DNA from: a bacterium
Lineage (GTDB): Bacteria; Hydrothermota; Tepidihabitantia; SM23-42; JAOAFX01
Reading direction: 5' to 3'
DNA: 64,000 nt
Assembly (NCBI GenBank): GCA_036382775.1
Contig: DASVHD010000006.1
Span: forward strand, 1 to 64,000
Each line of letters starts with the position of its first letter. The first letter of the stretch is position 1. The notes beneath the pieces were generated by a model, which worked only from the letters and a program-made list of their open reading frames with translations, did no database searches and was not told the origin of the DNA. Positions 15,699 to 60,025 of this stretch are shown in pieces. The translations under genes were made by a program, and so were the position numbers.

Positions 15699-16688
15699 TC
15701 AAGGTATCTCTTCCAGATCTTCTCTCGCCACCGCGTCAATGTTAAGGTTTGAACCGCCGAACCTCTTGTAGCGCCGCGCGCCGGCCATGGCGATCATCGC
15801 GCCATTGTCAGTGCAGTATTCTCTGTCGGGGACGTGGATCTGGCAGCCGGTTTCTTGTCCGAGTTTTAGTAGCTTGTTCTGCAACGTCTGGTTTGCCGAA
15901 ACACCACCAACAAGGCCCACATCCTTGACCCCCAGGTCTAAAACCGCTTTTTTCGTCACCTGCACGAGTTGCGACAGCGCGGATTCCTGAAAATTGGCTG
16001 CAATATCGGCCAGCCTACTGTTCCCATACTGTTGAACGTAATAGAGAACGGCTGTCTTCAAACCGGCGTAGCTGAAATCGTATCGACCCGCCTTCGGAAC
16101 CGGAAATCGGATCGCACCGAGTTGACCTTTAAGCGCGTACTTTTCAATGTAGGGACCACCCGGATACGGCAGGCCGATCAACTTAGCCACCTTGTCGAAC
16201 GCCTCGCCGCAGGCGTCATCCACGGTCCGGCCGATAGTTACATAATTGAATTCTTTTTTTACCAACACCAGCTCGGTATGCCCACCGGAGACGAGCAGCA
16301 CCAGATATGGATACGCCGGTCCTTTACCCCCGACGTGAAGCGTATAGATATGGCCTTCAAGGTGGTTTGTGCCGATAAACGGCTTTTTCAACGCAACCGC
16401 GAGGGCTTTGGCATACGACAATCCCACCAGCAGGGAACCCATCAGACCTGGTCCCCTGGTCACGCTGATCAAGCCGATATCCCGCAGACCGCACCCGGCG
16501 ATCTCGAGGGCGACATTGACCAGCGGCACGATGACCTTGATGTGGTTCCGTGCGGCAAGTTCCGGGACCACGCCGCCATATTTTGTATGAACGATCTGGC
16601 TTGAAACGACGTTCGAGCGCACCCTGCGGTCTTCGAGGATGCCGATGGCGGTTTCATCGCACGACGTTTCAATGCCGAGCGTTATCAT
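15699..16688 (-). CDS. tsaD: tRNA threonylcarbamoyladenosine transferase TsaD
   Basis: The 329-residue protein is the Kae1/TsaD subunit that transfers threonylcarbamoyl to A37 of ANN-decoding tRNAs with TsaB and TsaE. It has GIETSCDETA at the start, the metal-binding NHLEGH, the SGGHTELV phosphate loop, DDACGEAFDK and GGVSAN. Length is normal. The gene is convergent with rplQ. Its promoter places the +1 at or next to the start codon. Confidence 0.97.
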   Translation of the reverse strand: MITLGIETSCDETAIGILEDRRVRSNVVSSQIVHTKYGGVVPELAARNHIKVIVPLVNVALEIAGCGLRDIGLISVTRGPGLMGSLLVGLSYAKALAVALKKPFIGTNHLEGHIYTLHVGGKGPAYPYLVLLVSGGHTELVLVKKEFNYVTIGRTVDDACGEAFDKVAKLIGLPYPGGPYIEKYALKGQLGAIRFPVPKAGRYDFSYAGLKTAVLYYVQQYGNSRLADIAANFQESALSQLVQVTKKAVLDLGVKDVGLVGGVSANQTLQNKLLKLGQETGCQIHVPDREYCTDNGAMIAMAGARRYKRFGGSNLNIDAVAREDLEEIP

Positions 16689-16695
16689 ATCATAT

Positions 16696-16723
16696 ATTGT
16701 ATCTGGAAAATATGATAAATCAA
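16696..16723 (-). promoter_or_regulatory. tsaD promoter, leaderless or nearly so
   Basis: On the minus strand TTGATT (16723-16718), 16 bp and TACAAT (16701-16696) are followed by seven bases and the ATG at 16688. The expected start of transcription coincides with the start codon. No Shine-Dalgarno is visible. Confidence 0.65.
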
Positions 16724-16785
16724 CCGTGACGGAATATGAATGCGCGCCTTGACACGGGCTTTATTTTGGTTAACCTAAATAATCC

Positions 16786-17478
16786 ATGGCCCTGATACTC
16801 CTGCTAGTTGCACTGGCGCCCGGTTTCTTCCTTCTCTGGTATTTCTGGCACCGCGACCGGTACGAACCGGAACCAAAGAAAAAGATCATCCTCACTTTTA
16901 TCCTGGGCGCGGTCATGGTGATCCCGGCGATATTGATCGAGGTCTTGCTGGAACGCGGCGCAAACGCCCTGGCTGCCGGAGTACTCAATATTTTTCTGGT
17001 TTCGTTCATTGTAGTTGCGCCGACCGAAGAACTGCTTAAATTTTTCGTCATCAAGCAATGGGTATACAATTCAGTAGAGTTCGATGAAGTGATGGACGGC
17101 ATTGTCTACGCCGTATCGACATCTCTTGGTTTTGCCACACTGGAAAATATCTTTTACGTATTTCAACACGGTATCAGCACCGGCATAATCCGGGCGTTCC
17201 TGGCCGTCCCCGGACACGCGTTTTACGCCGCGATCATGGGATATTATCTTGGCCTTGCCAAGTTCGCGCCGTGCAAAAAAGGGCGGCTCATATTAACCGG
17301 CATCTTATTGGCAATATTTTTTCATGGCTTATACGATTTTCTGTTATTCACGAAGACCGCGCTGGCTGTGCTGGTCATACCTTTGATCATCGCGCTTGGT
17401 TTTATCGTAAGAAAGAACGTAAAAACCGCTGAAGTCCAGAGCAAGACGCGGCTGGATGAAGAAAATAAATGCTCATGA
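16786..17478 (+). CDS. PrsW-family intramembrane metalloprotease-like protein
   Basis: The 230-residue membrane protein has 6-7 hydrophobic segments. It carries the PrsW motifs: RYEPEPK after helix 1, the APTEELLKF glutamate pair, GFATLENIFY, and histidines in VPGHAFYAAIMGYYLG and FHGLYDFLL. PrsW cleaves an anti-sigma factor in Bacillus; here the substrate is unknown. No anti-sigma gene is adjacent. A TTGACA at 16749-16754 with a weak -10 precedes it and there is no ribosome site. folD follows 30 bp downstream. Confidence 0.85.
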   Translation: MALILLLVALAPGFFLLWYFWHRDRYEPEPKKKIILTFILGAVMVIPAILIEVLLERGANALAAGVLNIFLVSFIVVAPTEELLKFFVIKQWVYNSVEFDEVMDGIVYAVSTSLGFATLENIFYVFQHGISTGIIRAFLAVPGHAFYAAIMGYYLGLAKFAPCKKGRLILTGILLAIFFHGLYDFLLFTKTALAVLVIPLIIALGFIVRKNVKTAEVQSKTRLDEENKCS

Positions 17479-17508
17479 CCAACTTTTATTAAAAAAGAGG
17501 AGAAATTG

Positions 17509-18396
17509 ATGGCAAAATTATTGAACGGCAAGGAAACATCCGAAAAGATGCGCAGCGAAATGAAGGTGGAAGTCGCCAGGCTCAAGGAAAAATACAACCT
17601 CACCCCCGGGCTTGCGGTCATCCTGGTAGGTGATCATCCGCCTTCGGTCTCATACGTCAAATCAAAGGAACAGGCATGCGCCGATATCGGGGTGCTCTCC
17701 AAGAAATACAAGTTCGCTGCCGATTATCCCCAAACCGATCTGCTGAAGCTCATCGATGATCTCAACCGCGATCCTTCGGTCCACGGCATACTGGTGCAAG
17801 TCCCTTTGCCCGGTCACGTCGACGAGAAAAAAGTTCTTTACGCCATTGACCCGGCCAAGGATGTCGATGGTTTTCATCCCGTCAATATCGGGAAAATGAT
17901 GATCGGCGGCGACTGTTTTCTGCCCTGCACGCCTTTCGGCATCCAGCAGCTGATGCTGCAGAACGGGATCGACGTTGGCGGTAAACATGTTGTCATCGTG
18001 GGCCGTAGCAATATCGTCGGCAAACCACTGGCGATGATGCTGATCCAGAAAAAAAGGGGAGCGAATGCTACGGTCACAATATGCCACACCGGCACGAAAG
18101 ATCTGGCGCGGCATGTAGGGCAGGCGGATATCCTGGTGCTGGCGGCAGGTAAACCAAACACCGTGACCGCGGACATGATCAGCGATGGCGCCGTCGTTAT
18201 CATCGTCGGCCAAAACTGGATCGAGGACAAGACCAAAAAAAGCGGTTTCCGGGTCATCGGCGACGTGGATTTCGAAGCAGCCAGTCACAAGGCCAGTGCG
18301 ATCACCCCGGTGCTCGGCGGTGTCGGTCCGATGACGATCACCATGCTCATGCACAACACGATCCTGTCGGCAAAACGGCACGCCGGCATAGATTGA
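17509..18396 (+). CDS. folD: Bifunctional methylene-THF dehydrogenase/cyclohydrolase FolD
   Basis: The 295-residue enzyme oxidises 5,10-methylene-THF and hydrolyses methenyl-THF to 10-formyl-THF. Motifs: VGDHPPSVSYVKSKEQAC with the catalytic Lys, HGILVQVPLPGHVD, PCTPFGIQQLM, the VVIVGRSNIVGKPLA Rossmann loop and PVLGGVGPMT. I chose the ATG at 17509, six bases after GAGGAG; the TTG at 17506 is too close to that site. It supplies formyl-THF, which Fmt (encoded at 30.2 kb) uses. Confidence 0.97.
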   Translation: MAKLLNGKETSEKMRSEMKVEVARLKEKYNLTPGLAVILVGDHPPSVSYVKSKEQACADIGVLSKKYKFAADYPQTDLLKLIDDLNRDPSVHGILVQVPLPGHVDEKKVLYAIDPAKDVDGFHPVNIGKMMIGGDCFLPCTPFGIQQLMLQNGIDVGGKHVVIVGRSNIVGKPLAMMLIQKKRGANATVTICHTGTKDLARHVGQADILVLAAGKPNTVTADMISDGAVVIIVGQNWIEDKTKKSGFRVIGDVDFEAASHKASAITPVLGGVGPMTITMLMHNTILSAKRHAGID

Positions 18397-49156: not shown

Positions 49157-52100
49157 ATGATCCTTCGCGCTCTGGCGCTTTTCATCGTCATCATAAGTTT
49201 ACTGTCGGCCGGTGTCATAACCGAGACCATAGAATTTACACCTGCTGATTTCCAGTTTTCCACTCAAAATGGATACGACGTCGTAACTTTGCAAGGACAG
49301 TTTTCTACAACCGAAAAGGGGCGTCCTTTTTTACCGGCGGTCACTTATTACTATCTCATCCCGCCTACGGCTGAGATCACTTCCGTAGAGATTATTTCTT
49401 CTTCCATACAGGATTTTACGGGTAAGTATACCCCATATCCCGTACAGACCATCAGGCCTTTCTCAACGAACCGCATCATTCCCTTTGTCGAACCTGACGC
49501 CGGCGTTTATGGATCGGCCAAACCTTATCCCCGCGAGATCGTCGAGGCAATTCCCAGCGGTTGTCTATCCGGATACCGCTTGGCTGGTGTGATGCTTTAC
49601 CCGGTGCAGTTTATCCCGGCTGAAAAAAAGCTGCGCCTGTATAAAAGCATCACTCTTAAGATAAATTATACTGTAGGGCGCCATCCAACGATCCCGCTTA
49701 CCAAAAGCCAGGCCGACCTTTTTGGCGCGGAAGTAAAGAGCCTGGTGCGTAATCCAGAGACTATTGAATACTGGCGCCCGAGCGAATACAACGCGCGTGC
49801 CGGCGAGATCGACATGGTTATCATTACCAGTACAGGCCAGGCAGCCAACTGGAACGCTTTGAAAACCTGGAAGACCAAGAAAGGCATCAACACCGCGGTC
49901 ATAAGCACCGACTCGGTCTACGCACAGTACGCGGGCCGTGACAATCAGGAAAAGATTAGAAATTTTATCCGTGATTATTGGCAGACCAAAGGGCTGAAAT
50001 ACGTCATTCTCGGCGGCGACGACATGATAATACCCGACCGCAAGACGACTCTTTGGGTCGAAGAGAGCACGATCGTTGGCGACATCCCGACCGATATGTA
50101 CTATGCAGACCTGCAATGGTCATGGGATGGCAATCACAATGACCTCTTCGGTGAAATGGAAGACACCGTGGATCTCTTCCACGATGTCTATATCGGCCGG
50201 GCGCCGGTCGACAACGCCACCAACATAGCGACGTTCACGCGCAAGGACACGGTGTTCGAAAAACATCCCGATACGACCTATATGAAAACTTTGTTGCTTC
50301 CTTCAGAAATGCTGTTCGACCCGTATCACGGCAAGTATCCCAACAATATCATTGCCAGCTATTTCCCGGGTACCTGGAAGATCTCGAGGCTCGAAGATCC
50401 GTCATACAATCAAACCCGTGATTCGCTCAATAAGGGTTTCCAGCTGTGTCATGTCGCAGACCATGGCAGCCCCTGGTCTCTTGGCGTCCTTGACATAGAA
50501 CAGGTATCCACCCTGACCAACGGTATAAAATACGACATCTTAAACGGCATGAACTGCGATTGCGGCAGTTTTGACGGTATGGACTGCATCGCGGAAAGTT
50601 TGGTGAACATCCCCAACGGCGGCTGCGTCGCGACCATGCTCAATTCGCGTTACGGCCTGGGATATCCTCCCGGTCTTGGCCCATCCGAGATCCTCGATAT
50701 TGAGATCTTTAAGAGTTTTATCGTCGCCGGAGCTCTGGAATTTGGAGCTGCACACGGGCGGGCAAAAAATTTCTGCCGGGCTATGGCCATGTCACAGTCA
50801 CCGACCCGCTGGTGCGTGTACGAGAACACGCTGTTCGGCGATCCATCGCTCGCCGCGTACGCGACAAAACCGCAGCATATGACCGTCACGTACGCATCGT
50901 CAATACAGGCCGGGCCGCAGGCATTCCGCGTAATGGCAAGTATTACCGGTGTACCTATCAAGAGCGCGCTGATTTGCGCGATGAAGGGTACGGAAGTGTA
51001 TGCAACGGGCCGCACGAATGCACTGGGCTGGGTCGACCTGTTCGTGAACCCCTCCACCGGCACCATGAACGTGACGGTCACGTCAGAGAACTGCCTGCCC
51101 TTTGAAGGCACCTGCACCGTGACCGCCGGCTCACCAAGACCATGTATTACCTACTGGGCCCATCACGTCAATGACGCATCAGGTAATAATAACGGACGCA
51201 TGGATCCGGGCGAGACCGTTGATCTGGTCATAACGCTTAAAAATCAGGGCAATGCGACCGCGACGAATGTATCGGGAAAGCTCAGGACGACGTGTCCTTA
51301 TATAACATTTATTGATTCGACGGCGATATACGGTACTGTTCCAGCCGGTGACACTTCGACCGGCGCCGGCGATATCTACCGGCTGCAGGTTTCGAGCACC
51401 GCGCCCCAGGGTACGGAAGCAGAATTCATCGTTTTTTCCCAGGCCGGTGAAGGCACCTGGGAGCCTTTCTTCATTGATATCATCGGTACTATTCCCCAAC
51501 CGGGGCTGGTCTGGGCAGACCATGATACGGGTGCGTGCGTGCTTTCGGTCACGACCTTCGGCGGATTCGGGACAACCTATCCTCATGGCGAAGGTTCGGG
51601 CTTTAAATACTCAAAGATCGTTTCTAACGGTTCATTGTATTACGGAAGCATGGTCTGCGGAACCAGCTCTTCGTATATCGTTGACCGCTTCTACGGACCG
51701 CCATCTTCCTCCACGATCAACTATGATTTCAATATCCTCGATACGCTCAAGCCCGTCCTGCCGCCGCGCGCAGCATGCGAAGAGTATGAAGCGGTCTATA
51801 GCGATTCGGGCCATGCCAGCCCAAAGGGGCTGATCGTCACGCAGTGGAGCCTGATGAATTCACAGCCTGGTTATGATGACTGGGCTATCGTGTGCTTCGA
51901 TTATTTCAATTCCGGATCAACGTCGATCACCAACTTCTATTCGGGCATGATGTTCGACTTTGATTTATATAATACCACGGACAATATCGTGAGGTCCGAC
52001 ACGGTCCGCAGGTTCACGTACATGATGCAGCCTTACTCCATGTACCCTACCTGCGGGGTCAGGCTCATTGAACCGATAACAGCGCGCAATCTGTCCGCGA

Positions 52101-52642
52101 TCGACCACCTTTATTATGTCGAACCTGCGACCATGATGACCGAAGCGGTAAAAGACTCATTTTTAAAGGGTCTACTGCAACTGCGTAACAGCACCAGGAC
52201 TGATAATTATTCGATCTGCGTCTCGGCTGGCCCCTATACTATCACTCCGGGCGGAAACGCGCGTGCCGTGTACGCGGTCGTTGGCGGCAATGATTCCACG
52301 CTCGCAAAGATCAACTCGGACAGCGCCCAGTCATGGTGGGACCAACACAGCGGCGCGGTCGAAAACCGTCAAGCCGCGCACATGCGGCGAGCCGTATTAC
52401 AGCTGGTCCAAAACCCGGCCCGTCATCACATCGGGATCGCCTATCAACTGAACAAAAATGAAACGGTGGCGATCGATCTTTACGATGCTACCGGCCAGCG
52501 CCGTACGCGGATCTTTGAGGGCACGCTTACTGGAAAGGGTGTGCTTAACTGGACCCCCGCGCACCTTGCGCCGGGCGTCTATTTCGTCAGGCTGCAGCAG
52601 TCAACCGGCGATTCCATTGAAAAAGTCCTGTACTTGAGGTAA
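49157..52642 (+). CDS. Gingipain-type C25 cysteine protease with C-terminal sorting domain
   Basis: The 1161-residue secreted protease has a signal peptide, a propeptide to about 210, and the C25 catalytic domain: the IITSTGQAANWNALKTWKTKKG start, His436 in HVADHG and Cys467 in NCDCGSFD match the gingipain dyad. A long middle part has Ig-like segments (GNNNGRMDPGETVDLVITLKNQGNATATNVSG). The last 80 residues are a sorting domain (NPARHHIGIAYQL, LYDATGQR, LAPGVYFVRLQ, KVLYLR), implying type IX-like secretion. It is an extracellular protein degrader. Confidence 0.93.
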   Translation: MILRALALFIVIISLLSAGVITETIEFTPADFQFSTQNGYDVVTLQGQFSTTEKGRPFLPAVTYYYLIPPTAEITSVEIISSSIQDFTGKYTPYPVQTIRPFSTNRIIPFVEPDAGVYGSAKPYPREIVEAIPSGCLSGYRLAGVMLYPVQFIPAEKKLRLYKSITLKINYTVGRHPTIPLTKSQADLFGAEVKSLVRNPETIEYWRPSEYNARAGEIDMVIITSTGQAANWNALKTWKTKKGINTAVISTDSVYAQYAGRDNQEKIRNFIRDYWQTKGLKYVILGGDDMIIPDRKTTLWVEESTIVGDIPTDMYYADLQWSWDGNHNDLFGEMEDTVDLFHDVYIGRAPVDNATNIATFTRKDTVFEKHPDTTYMKTLLLPSEMLFDPYHGKYPNNIIASYFPGTWKISRLEDPSYNQTRDSLNKGFQLCHVADHGSPWSLGVLDIEQVSTLTNGIKYDILNGMNCDCGSFDGMDCIAESLVNIPNGGCVATMLNSRYGLGYPPGLGPSEILDIEIFKSFIVAGALEFGAAHGRAKNFCRAMAMSQSPTRWCVYENTLFGDPSLAAYATKPQHMTVTYASSIQAGPQAFRVMASITGVPIKSALICAMKGTEVYATGRTNALGWVDLFVNPSTGTMNVTVTSENCLPFEGTCTVTAGSPRPCITYWAHHVNDASGNNNGRMDPGETVDLVITLKNQGNATATNVSGKLRTTCPYITFIDSTAIYGTVPAGDTSTGAGDIYRLQVSSTAPQGTEAEFIVFSQAGEGTWEPFFIDIIGTIPQPGLVWADHDTGACVLSVTTFGGFGTTYPHGEGSGFKYSKIVSNGSLYYGSMVCGTSSSYIVDRFYGPPSSSTINYDFNILDTLKPVLPPRAACEEYEAVYSDSGHASPKGLIVTQWSLMNSQPGYDDWAIVCFDYFNSGSTSITNFYSGMMFDFDLYNTTDNIVRSDTVRRFTYMMQPYSMYPTCGVRLIEPITARNLSAIDHLYYVEPATMMTEAVKDSFLKGLLQLRNSTRTDNYSICVSAGPYTITPGGNARAVYAVVGGNDSTLAKINSDSAQSWWDQHSGAVENRQAAHMRRAVLQLVQNPARHHIGIAYQLNKNETVAIDLYDATGQRRTRIFEGTLTGKGVLNWTPAHLAPGVYFVRLQQSTGDSIEKVLYLR

Positions 52643-54355: not shown

Positions 54356-54383
54356 TTGACAAATCCGACATTTATAGTATAAT
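54356..54383 (+). promoter_or_regulatory. Promoter of the putative selenoprotein gene
   Basis: TTGACA (54356-54361), 16 bp, TATAAT (54378-54383). The ATG at 54421 follows AAAGGGGGTG, a strong ribosome site. An intact promoter and start argue that the gene is expressed despite its internal UGA. Confidence 0.85.
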
Positions 54384-54420
54384 AATATAAGATTTCAGAA
54401 TAACCCATAAAGGGGGTGTT

Positions 54421-55443
54421 ATGAAGCTTAAACTACTTTGTGTTTTGGGTTTGGTCCTGGCATTCAACATGGTTTACGCTGCGACCAGGGTTGTGATGTG
54501 TGAAGAGTACTACATGGCGACTTGAGCAACCTGCCCTTATTCCAGCAGTCTGCTGGACACCGTCTGTATTCTACAGTATCCCACCGCGACTACGCTGATC
54601 GAGTTGCACTCAGTATCCGGTAATTTTGGTTATTTCGCTGAAGCCGCTGCACGCACGAGTTTCTACACTTTTTACGGCTACCCGTCGCTATTCAGAGACG
54701 GCAAGGACATCTGGAGCGGGTCGTCACCATCTGATTGGCGTGATTCGGTCGTTGCTCGCATGGCTAAGCCATCGCCCATGACCCTGACCATTACCGGGTC
54801 ATATAACGCGGGGGCAAACACGGGCACCATCAGTGCTTCCTACCGCAATGATTCTTCAGCATCGGTGACCGCCCGGTTCTATTTCGTCGTCACCGAAGAT
54901 AGCCTGTATAACGTTGATCCCAATGGCCATGCGTGGCATAACCACATGGGCCGCGATTTCCTGCCTGACCAAACCGGCGAGCAAGTAACGATCGCGGCGG
55001 GCGCGACCGCGACCAGAAGCCGGAATTTCACGATCAGCGGCTCCTGGAACGAGAACCGCTGCGCCATCGCGACCTGGCTTCAATACGACGCGCCTTCCCG
55101 TGATGTCCTGCAATCAGGGCACGTGAACATCATGAACCTGGTGGGCGTGGACGAAGGCAAATCGGTCGCCGCCGACTTACCTTTTGCCCGGCAGGTCAAT
55201 AACCCATGTTCCCGATCCGCTAATTTCATCATCCATGTCCTGGAAAGATCAGAATACACGGTATCCTTCTTTGACATTACCGGACGCCGGCTGCGGATGC
55301 TGTCGGGGATCGCATTGCCCGGTAACAATGATGTGTCCTGGGATCTGCGGGATATGAACGGGAACCGTGTCAGCGCCGGGATCTACCTGTACCGGATAAC
55401 GAACCCGAACATAAACAAAACCGGGAAATTGATCGTGCGATAA
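54421..55443 (+). CDS. Omp28-like thioredoxin-fold protein, putative selenoprotein (in-frame UGA, U35xxC38)
   Basis: The frame from ATG 54421 runs to 55443 with a single internal TGA (54523-54525, codon 35), giving 340 residues. A signal peptide (KLKLLCVLGLVLAFNMVYA) is followed by VVMCEEYYMAT-U-ATCPYSSS, where the TGA and Cys38 form the CxxC site of Omp28-type proteins. The thioredoxin cis-Pro loop (YGYPSLFRDG) lies downstream. The C-terminus is a FlgD-like sorting domain (FFDITGRRLRML, VSAGIYLYRI). A hairpin placed like a SECIS follows the UGA. It probably acts as an exported redox or selenoprotein. A nonsense mutation is the alternative. Confidence 0.8.
54541..54557 (+). promoter_or_regulatory. 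Candidate bacterial SECIS hairpin
   Basis: TCCAGCA (54541-54547), loop GTC (54548-54550) and TGCTGGA (54551-54557) form a perfect 7-bp stem. The loop begins 22 nt after the UGA and starts with G-U, as required for SelB binding in known bacterial SECIS elements (apical G in the first loop positions, 16-37 nt from the UGA). It lies fully inside the coding sequence. Confidence 0.65.
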
Positions 55444-55463: not shown

Positions 55464-55502
55464 AATAACGGGCAGTAAGCGAACTTACTGCCCGTTATTT
55501 TT
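55464..55502 (+). terminator. Rho-independent terminator
   Basis: A perfect 16-bp stem (AATAACGGGCAGTAAG, 55464-55479, with 55484-55499) and tetraloop CGAA are followed by a short T-run. It lies 20 bp after the Omp28-like gene. It may serve both strands, since the nucleotidyltransferase gene ends at 55521. Confidence 0.85.
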
Positions 55503-58666: not shown

Positions 58667-60025
58667 CTATTTTACTTTTATCACCTTGACGCAACTGCCG
58701 TTGGCTGCCGTTTTTGCCCTAACAAAGTAAACGCCCGCGCCCAGCTTCGAGCAATCATAATAACCGTTACGGGTCATACCGATCAAACCGCCTGAAGCAT
58801 CATAAACATAGGCCTCGTTGCCTTCAAAATAATCACGCAGCTCAATGGCATTCGTGACGACCGTCGACTTGAGCAGGGACATCCGGCTGGCATTACCCGA
58901 CCCCTCCTCGATGCCTACTTCTACATCGATATTTCCATAGATGTCATAAGTGGATCGCGTTTCACACCAGACATTCAGGCAGCGATCATTAGCACCCGGG
59001 ATCACGTCACCGTAGTAGCAATTATAGGTAGAATTGGATATCTTAAAGGCGGTCTCAATGGGCATGCCTGATGCACTGTAAAATATTCCGTAGACCTGGT
59101 AAACACTGCCATCCATGATACTGTAGGTGACAATGAAGTTATAACCATCAAATGCAAGCCCCATTGAATTATAATAATAAATACCGGTAGCGATCGTGAA
59201 TGGACCACTGATCCGTGCGCCATTGCTGTCCAGCACCACGCCTTTTATTGCGTAATCAGAACCAGTATATTCTACCCACGCCACAAAGTAATTTGCTCCA
59301 TTAGAAGCCAGGCGGGTACCGAATATGTATCCGCCGGGAACCGCTACCACCAACGTATCACCAAGTGTGCCGGTCGTGTCAATGAACCTGCCCATGATCT
59401 GATAAGGGCTGGTTCCGTAAGTCCAGACCGCCAAGAACCTGGTGCCGCCGAATGCCACGGACGGGTAATACTGGAAAAAGGTGTTGTTTGGTCCTACAAG
59501 CATGCCGCTCGGTTCCATCACGCTGCCGCCGGGCGTTACCCGGGCACCAAAGATCTGGTAATAAGGGACGGTCCTGCCGTCACTCCACACGACCATATAG
59601 TAGCCGCCGCCGAACGCTACGTCAGGACTGTACTGGATATTCGGGGCATTGGAAATAACAACCGAGTTGATTGTATCGCAGTTCGAAGTGACACGCACTC
59701 CGTAAATATCGCCGTAACTTCAGCAGCCGTTGCGGAAAACAGCCATGATATTGGTGCCGTCAAAAGCCACTTCGGCCTTTGCTTTGACCGTGTCGGCGAA
59801 AAGCCATTTTCCGCCGGGGTCCAGTACCGTACCGTCGGCCGTTATTCTCGCGCCGTACAGGACATATATGTAGGACATGGCGCCAAAACGGTAATCGGGC
59901 CAGAAGACATAATACTGACCATTGGCGAAGATCGGCGTGGGATCGATCTGCATATCAACATCAGTACAAACAGGGAAATCTGCGTTGAACAAGCAAACTG
60001 AGAACAACAACGAAATAATATCCAT
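58667..60025 (-). CDS. Secreted beta-propeller-like protein with one in-frame UGA (selenoprotein or pseudogene)
   Basis: From the ATG at 60025 (ATGGAGGA upstream) the frame runs 452 codons to 58667 with one internal TGA at codon 102 (59722-59720), directly after Cys101 (RNGC-U-SYGDIYG). The protein has a short signal-like start and repeats of the form 'YYxVxWxDxR...IYGARxTxxG' that resemble a propeller. The C-terminus is a sorting domain (VYDASGGLIGM, LGAGVYFVRAK, CVKVIKVK). A 6-bp hairpin lies 24 nt after the UGA. In other repeats the UGA position falls in a variable loop. A CGA-to-TGA nonsense mutation is equally possible. Confidence 0.6.
59685..59701 (-). promoter_or_regulatory. Weak candidate SECIS hairpin
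   Basis: On the minus strand GGAGTG (59701-59696) pairs with CACTTC (59690-59685), including one G-U pair, around a CGTGT loop. The loop starts 24 nt after the UGA and has G as its second base. The geometry fits, but a 6-bp stem can arise by chance. Confidence 0.35.

What the first reader, a model, noticed from the sequence alone, without database searches (positions are those of the whole stretch)
54421..55443. Putative selenoprotein of the Omp28/thioredoxin-fold family: in-frame UGA makes a U-x-x-C site
Seen: a single TGA at codon 35 of an otherwise open 340-codon frame, with signal peptide, promoter, strong ribosome site and downstream cis-Pro loop (GYPSLF) all intact. It gives EEYYMAT-U-ATC, placing U exactly at the first Cys of the CxxC redox site. 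A 7-bp stem with a GTC loop begins 22 nt downstream, in bacterial SECIS geometry. Known: thioredoxin-fold CxxC sites are the commonest places for Sec in bacteria. Inferred: a secreted, sorting-domain-bearing redox selenoprotein, an unusual combination.
Basis: partly seen in the sequence, partly recalled or inferred. Interest (0 to 1): 0.92.

Follow-up and report, generated by a model that had tools for sequence, protein, structure and literature searches.

The report
Exported Omp28-type selenoprotein, UGA read-through
This gene's internal UGA almost certainly encodes selenocysteine in an exported thioredoxin-like protein; the protein family was already known to include selenoproteins, but here it is one of seven such copies in a genome that also carries two further, apparently undescribed, families of exported selenoproteins.

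Summary
A single TGA (54523-54525) interrupts an otherwise open 340-codon frame, and the interpretation passes every test available here. The genome carries selA, selB, a tRNA-Sec with anticodon UCA, and two selD genes. In 66 homologues with an in-frame TGA, the TGA aligns exactly with U35; in 27 of 28 homologues without it the residue is Cys (one is Ser). Genomes of the phylum with the TGA form have selA in 49 of 54 cases; genomes listed with only Cys forms have it in 0 of 18. The hairpin after the UGA meets the bacterial SECIS model, is retained in most TGA genes and is lost in Cys homologues. The kind is known: GOS_C / NF045500 'Omp28-related selenoprotein' (UxxC). This protein scores 51.7 bits against that model's cut-off of 200, and no genome of the phylum reaches it: a distinct, type IX-tailed branch. 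New here: seven paralogues in one genome; conserved adjacency to an apparently undescribed selenoprotein family (HTC-U-GA) beside selC; and a third, unnamed UGA family with a member in this window (58670-60025, minus). The enzymatic role, probably extracytoplasmic thiol/selenol oxidoreductase, is inferred and untested.

The parts
54356..54383 (+). sigma-70-like promoter, TTGACA-16-TATAAT
   Evidence: 12 of 12 consensus match; consensus match only
54409..54416 (+). ribosome-binding site AAAGGGGG
   Evidence: read from sequence
54421..55443 (+). selenoprotein gene: signal peptide, thioredoxin-like/Omp28 domain with U-x-x-C, C-terminal sorting domain (340 aa)
54421..54480 (+). putative signal peptide (MKLKLLCVLGLVLAFNMVYA)
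   Evidence: inferred from sequence; no signal-peptide program available
54523..54525 (+). UGA codon 35, read as selenocysteine; first position of U-x-x-C (C38 at 54532-54534)
   Evidence: aligned with UGA in 66 homologues and with Cys in 27 of 28 others
54541..54557 (+). bSECIS hairpin: 7-bp stem, GUC loop at 54548-54550 (22 nt after the UGA)
   Evidence: model constraints from PMC13188914
54682..54684 (+). Pro88, invariant, at the cis-Pro position of a thioredoxin fold (GYPSLF)
   Evidence: invariant in 38 homologues, precedes strand 89-92 in the model; cis geometry not checked
55201..55440 (+). type IX type A C-terminal sorting domain (residues 261-340)
   Evidence: TIGR04183 31.5 bits, cut-off 23
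55467..55502 (+). intrinsic-terminator-like hairpin with T tail
   Evidence: read from sequence

Best explanation
The gene encodes an exported selenoprotein. SelB carrying Sec-tRNA(UCA) reads UGA 54523 as selenocysteine, directed by the hairpin whose loop lies 22 nt downstream (inferred from genes and structure, not shown biochemically). The protein has a signal peptide, an Omp28-type thioredoxin-like domain with a U35-x-x-C38 redox pair facing Pro88, a beta-sandwich domain, and a type IX sorting tail that probably delivers it to the cell surface. The most likely function is a cell-surface or periplasmic thiol/selenol-disulfide oxidoreductase (reductase, isomerase or peroxidase-like), with Sec as the attacking nucleophile and Cys38 as the resolving residue. 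In this lineage it has multiplied to seven paralogues and works alongside other exported selenoproteins. The stated confidence is for Sec insertion in an exported Omp28-type protein; I put the oxidoreductase role at about 0.7.
For: selA above cut-off; selB adjacent to selA with SelB winged-helix domains; tRNA-Sec 80.4 bits and anticodon UCA by ARAGORN; two selD genes that themselves carry an in-frame TGA. Own genome: seven Omp28-type paralogues, each with exactly one TGA, all at the U35 column. Phylum: 54 genomes with TGA forms, 49 with selA; 18 listed genomes with only non-TGA forms, 0 with selA; Fisher 8e-13, uncorrected for relatedness. The five exceptions are incomplete or have fragmentary selA hits. 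UGA/Cys exchange in 66 and 27 of 28 sequences. Hairpin: pair 23-29, which joins two third codon positions, is C-G in 26 and T-A in 25 of 65 and standard-paired in 92%, against 36% in Cys homologues; Fisher 4e-10 uncorrected. UGA as ordinary stop: 21 of 51 long ORFs in the window end in TGA. Fold: mean pLDDT 91.8, order E25-31, H38-52, E57-63, H73-81, E89-92, H103-114; profile matches to solved thioredoxins. SprA translocon homologue in the genome.
Against: No expression, selenium-labelling or mass-spectrometry data exist here. After correction for phylogeny the covariation is only suggestive (about 5 of 7 independent contrasts agree, at most 1 disagrees, median p 0.22). In the most distant TGA homologues (for example L046, L047, L077-L085 in part) the hairpin does not sit in the same register. 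Foldseek against PDB returned mainly beta-sandwich matches with low TM-scores rather than thioredoxins, so the thioredoxin fold rests on secondary-structure order, motif and weak profile matches. Catalytic role, partners and location are inferred.
Confidence: 0.93

Rival explanations
1. A pseudogene or sequencing error: a Cys codon (TGT/TGC) has mutated or been misread as TGA, leaving a broken gene.
For: One base separates TGA from TGT/TGC, and the window genome is a fragmented assembly (51 contigs).
Against: The same TGA recurs in about 54 genomes and in all seven paralogues of this genome; the frame downstream stays open for 305 codons and conserved; the promoter is intact.
Confidence: 0.01
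2. The organism reads UGA as an ordinary sense codon (for example Trp or Gly, as in some uncultured lineages).
For: An in-frame TGA within a conserved protein is the usual first sign.
Against: 21 of 51 long ORFs in the window end in TGA; only one TGA per gene, always at a Cys position; full Sec genes including tRNA-Sec(UCA).
Confidence: 0.01
3. UGA is decoded in the Sec context but Cys (or a Sec/Cys mixture) is inserted, so the mature protein is a CxxC oxidoreductase.
For: Nothing in the DNA separates the two; Cys homologues look functional at the same site.
Against: selA and two selD genes, specific to selenium, are kept, and selA tracks the TGA forms across genomes.
Confidence: 0.04
4. It is a selenoprotein, but the sorting-tail protein has a structural or binding role at the surface, the U-x-x-C serving for metal or selenium binding rather than redox catalysis.
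For: I know of no established enzymatic activity for Omp28 and its relatives; some paralogues sit next to carbohydrate-binding-module-like proteins that also carry a UGA.
Against: U-x-x-C before a helix with an invariant facing Pro is the classic thioredoxin-type catalytic arrangement.
Confidence: 0.2

Closest known systems
GOS_C selenoprotein / NCBIfam NF045500 'Omp28-related selenoprotein' (Zhang and Gladyshev 2008, PMC2398784; listed in PMC13188914 Table 1)
   Same: Omp28/thioredoxin-like domain, one Sec in a U-x-x-C motif, Cys homologues, SECIS-like hairpin downstream
   Different: Scores 51.7 bits against a cut-off of 200; no genome of this phylum reaches the cut-off. Carries a type IX sorting tail and is multiplied to seven copies
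Omp28 family (PF11551; lipoprotein subfamily NF033782)
   Same: Same domain, above the Pfam gathering score (52.9 against 34.9)
   Different: Sec in place of the first Cys; below the NF033782 lipoprotein cut-off (37.1 against 150)
Bacterial thioredoxin selenoproteins (U-x-x-C)
   Same: Redox motif and predicted strand/helix order
   Different: Exported, with extra beta-sandwich and sorting domains; only distant sequence similarity
Type IX secretion type A cargo (TIGR04183)
   Same: C-terminal sorting domain above cut-off, SprA homologue in the genome
   Different: Cargo carries selenocysteine; a literature search for selenoprotein plus type IX secretion found no relevant paper

Membership tests
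Bacterial selenoprotein | SelA, SelB, SelC and SelD genes in the genome | tested here: met
Bacterial selenoprotein | in-frame UGA aligned with Cys in homologues | tested here: met
   66 UGA, 27 of 28 others Cys
Bacterial selenoprotein | bSECIS: loop 3-9 nt with G in its first two positions, upper stem 4-16 bp, loop 16-37 nt after UGA (PMC13188914) | tested here: met
   loop GUC, 7 bp, 22 nt
Bacterial selenoprotein | selenium incorporated at the UGA | not testable with these tools
   needs 75Se labelling or mass spectrometry
NF045500 Omp28-related selenoprotein (GOS_C) | whole-protein score at or above 200 bits | tested here: not met
   51.7 bits; 0 of 147 genomes of the phylum over the cut-off
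NF045500 Omp28-related selenoprotein (GOS_C) | U-x-x-C with one Sec | tested here: met
   U35-A-T-C38; motif of the family from PMC13188914 Table 1
Omp28 (PF11551) | score above the gathering threshold | tested here: met
   52.9 against 34.9 bits
Type IX secretion cargo (TIGR04183) | C-terminal sorting domain above cut-off | tested here: met
   31.5 against 23 bits
Type IX secretion cargo (TIGR04183) | SprA translocon in the same genome | tested here: met
   308.5 bits with neighbouring matches in the frame, cut-off 200; other components not searched
Type IX secretion cargo (TIGR04183) | actual export to the surface | not testable with these tools
   needs fractionation
Thioredoxin fold | beta-alpha-beta-alpha-beta order with the redox pair before the helix and a facing cis-Pro | tested here: inconclusive
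   order and invariant Pro88 present, profile matches to solved thioredoxins at E about 1e-3, but Foldseek top matches were beta-sandwich proteins; cis geometry not measured

The most novel reading that the evidence does not exclude
The gene is one component of an exported, type IX-addressed selenoprotein system. Besides the Omp28-type proteins it comprises at least two selenoprotein families absent from the 2026 inventory consulted here: the HTC-U-GA proteins encoded beside selC and next to Omp28-type genes, and the GC-U proteins, one in this window. Together they would form an extracellular selenium-based redox chain at the cell surface.
Probability: 0.4. Interest if true: 0.85.

Novelty: new variant of a known kind. 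Interest (0 to 1): 0.62.

Why it matters
As far as I know, most catalogued bacterial selenoproteins are not surface-displayed. A lineage that exports many of them through what looks like type IX secretion, with some of the genes clustered beside selABC, suggests a dedicated extracytoplasmic use of selenium. Practically, ordinary annotation cuts these genes at the UGA: the focal gene would be called as a 279-residue fragment starting at 54604, with its signal peptide and redox motif removed. The UGA/Cys pairs and the compact hairpins make the system directly testable.

Tried and rejected
Rfam scan of the window at gathering thresholds: no match. Literature for Omp28 with selenoprotein: none; the link to GOS_C came from Table 1 of PMC13188914 and PMC2398784. 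Haft and Tolstoy 2025 is not held, so its families were seen only as rows of that table. Foldseek on the focal model was uninformative. Considered and rejected: pseudogene or sequencing error, code reassignment.

Full report
OBSERVATION. The frame 54421-55443 (+) encodes 340 residues with a single TGA at codon 35. A 12-of-12 promoter match lies at 54356-54383, a G-rich ribosome site precedes the ATG, and a terminator-like hairpin starts at 55467. About 1% of all TGA triplets in the window have an equally good hairpin, so this alone would not be convincing.

SELENOCYSTEINE MACHINERY. The genome has selA, selB adjacent to it (637 aa, EF-Tu-type GTPase plus SelB winged-helix domains), a tRNA-Sec with anticodon UCA (80.4 bits) and two selD genes which each contain an in-frame TGA of their own (CPG-U-AS / CAG-U-AS).

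HOMOLOGUES. In 147 genomes of the same phylum 134 have a match, many of full length with exactly one internal TGA. I aligned 94 homologues (the window gene's own copy included): 66 have TGA, all at the U35 column, and 28 do not; of these 27 have Cys and one Ser. The typical Cys form reads TATWC-x-YCPG, a thioredoxin-like active site. Of 54 genomes with TGA forms 49 have selA above the model cut-off; of 18 listed genomes with only non-TGA forms none has (Fisher 8e-13, not corrected for relatedness). The listing was truncated, so these are counts of listed genomes. The exceptions are 53-83% complete bins, or have only fragmentary selA hits (G075, G131).

HAIRPIN. In the TGA homologues the hairpin positions are conserved. 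Pair 23-29 (counted from the U of UGA as 0) joins two third codon positions and is C-G in 26 and T-A in 25 of 65; it is a standard pair in 92%, against 36% in Cys homologues, and pair 22-30 in 82% against 21%. The tree needs at least nine changes of each base. In independent contrasts about 5 of 7 agree and at most 1 disagrees, which is suggestive but underpowered. The model limits come from PMC13188914.

PROTEIN. Pfam: Omp28 (52.9 bits, cut-off 34.9). NCBIfam: NF045500 Omp28-related selenoprotein 51.7 bits (cut-off 200), TIGR04183 type A sorting domain 31.5 (cut-off 23). Invariant residues in 38 homologues include U/C35, C38, H63, P88, D93, G94. The AlphaFold model has mean pLDDT 91.8 and the strand/helix order of a thioredoxin-like domain followed by beta-sandwich domains. 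Profile search against the PDB finds a PorU chain and sorting-domain chains, and weakly thioredoxins. A SprA homologue is present, and the gene at 49157-52642, close upstream, is a C25-family peptidase with a sorting tail.

WHAT IS KNOWN. Table 1 of PMC13188914 equates NF045500 with 'hypothetical protein GOS_C' (UxxC), first predicted in marine metagenomes with a thioredoxin-like fold (PMC2398784). The finding therefore belongs to a known kind, but falls far below the curated cut-off, as does every genome in its phylum, and adds the sorting tail. I call it a new variant.

WIDER SYSTEM. The genome has seven Omp28-type TGA genes. Two of them follow two ~640-residue genes with motif HTC-U-GA, just beyond selC in a contig that also holds selA, selB and one selD. 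HTC-U homologues carry one TGA at the same place across many genomes, with a nearly invariant hairpin GGCGAA-GGTC-TTCGCC. They have no Pfam or NCBIfam match except in the sorting-tail region; their N-domain model (mean pLDDT 71) gives Foldseek matches that include carbohydrate-binding modules. HTC-U and Omp28-type TGA genes lie within 2 kb of each other in 17 genomes, in 16 of them on the same strand. A third family, with GC-U, has a member in this window at 58670-60025 (-) and three paralogues in the genome plus homologues in G013, G014 and G016, all with TGA at the same codon. None of the entries in the inventory matches these two families by my reading; that is a reading of one table, not a database search.

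MECHANISM. Shown by computation: machinery, UGA/Cys exchange, hairpin, domains. Inferred: actual Sec insertion, export, and redox catalysis by U35/C38. I consider Sec insertion near-certain and a thiol/selenol oxidoreductase role likely but unproven.

Noticed in passing
L011:13921-15834 and 15970-17892 (G000:C48, beside selC); also L154, L155: A family of exported proteins (two of ~640 aa here) with an in-frame UGA in the motif HTC-U-GA and a near-invariant hairpin GGCGAA-GGTC-TTCGCC; one TGA in each of many homologues in the phylum, no family match besides the sorting tail, conserved next to Omp28-type UGA genes. Looks like an undescribed selenoprotein family.
   Followed up: partly
window 58670-60025 (-), TGA at 59722-59720: A second selenoprotein candidate within the window: RNGC-U-SYGDIYG in a 452-residue repeat protein, split by ordinary ORF calling (58667-59698 and 59720-60025). 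Three own-genome paralogues and homologues in other genomes have TGA at the same codon; the non-TGA relatives checked have T, N or E there, not Cys.
   Followed up: partly
G000:C48:27797-28702 and G000:C16:27653-28558: Two selD genes, both with an in-frame TGA (CPG-U-AS / CAG-U-AS).
   Followed up: partly
window 49157-52642 (+): C25-family peptidase (gingipain/PorU-like) with propeptide and type IX sorting tail.
   Followed up: no
L045 (G000:C41), L046 and L047 (G000:C23): Omp28-type UGA domains in longer open frames of about 630-790 residues.
   Followed up: no
L011:1202-6982 (G000:C48): Upstream of selA: RACo-type reactivator, HGD-D-type protein and a URO-D family protein, suggesting corrinoid-dependent methyl transfer genes.
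   Followed up: no
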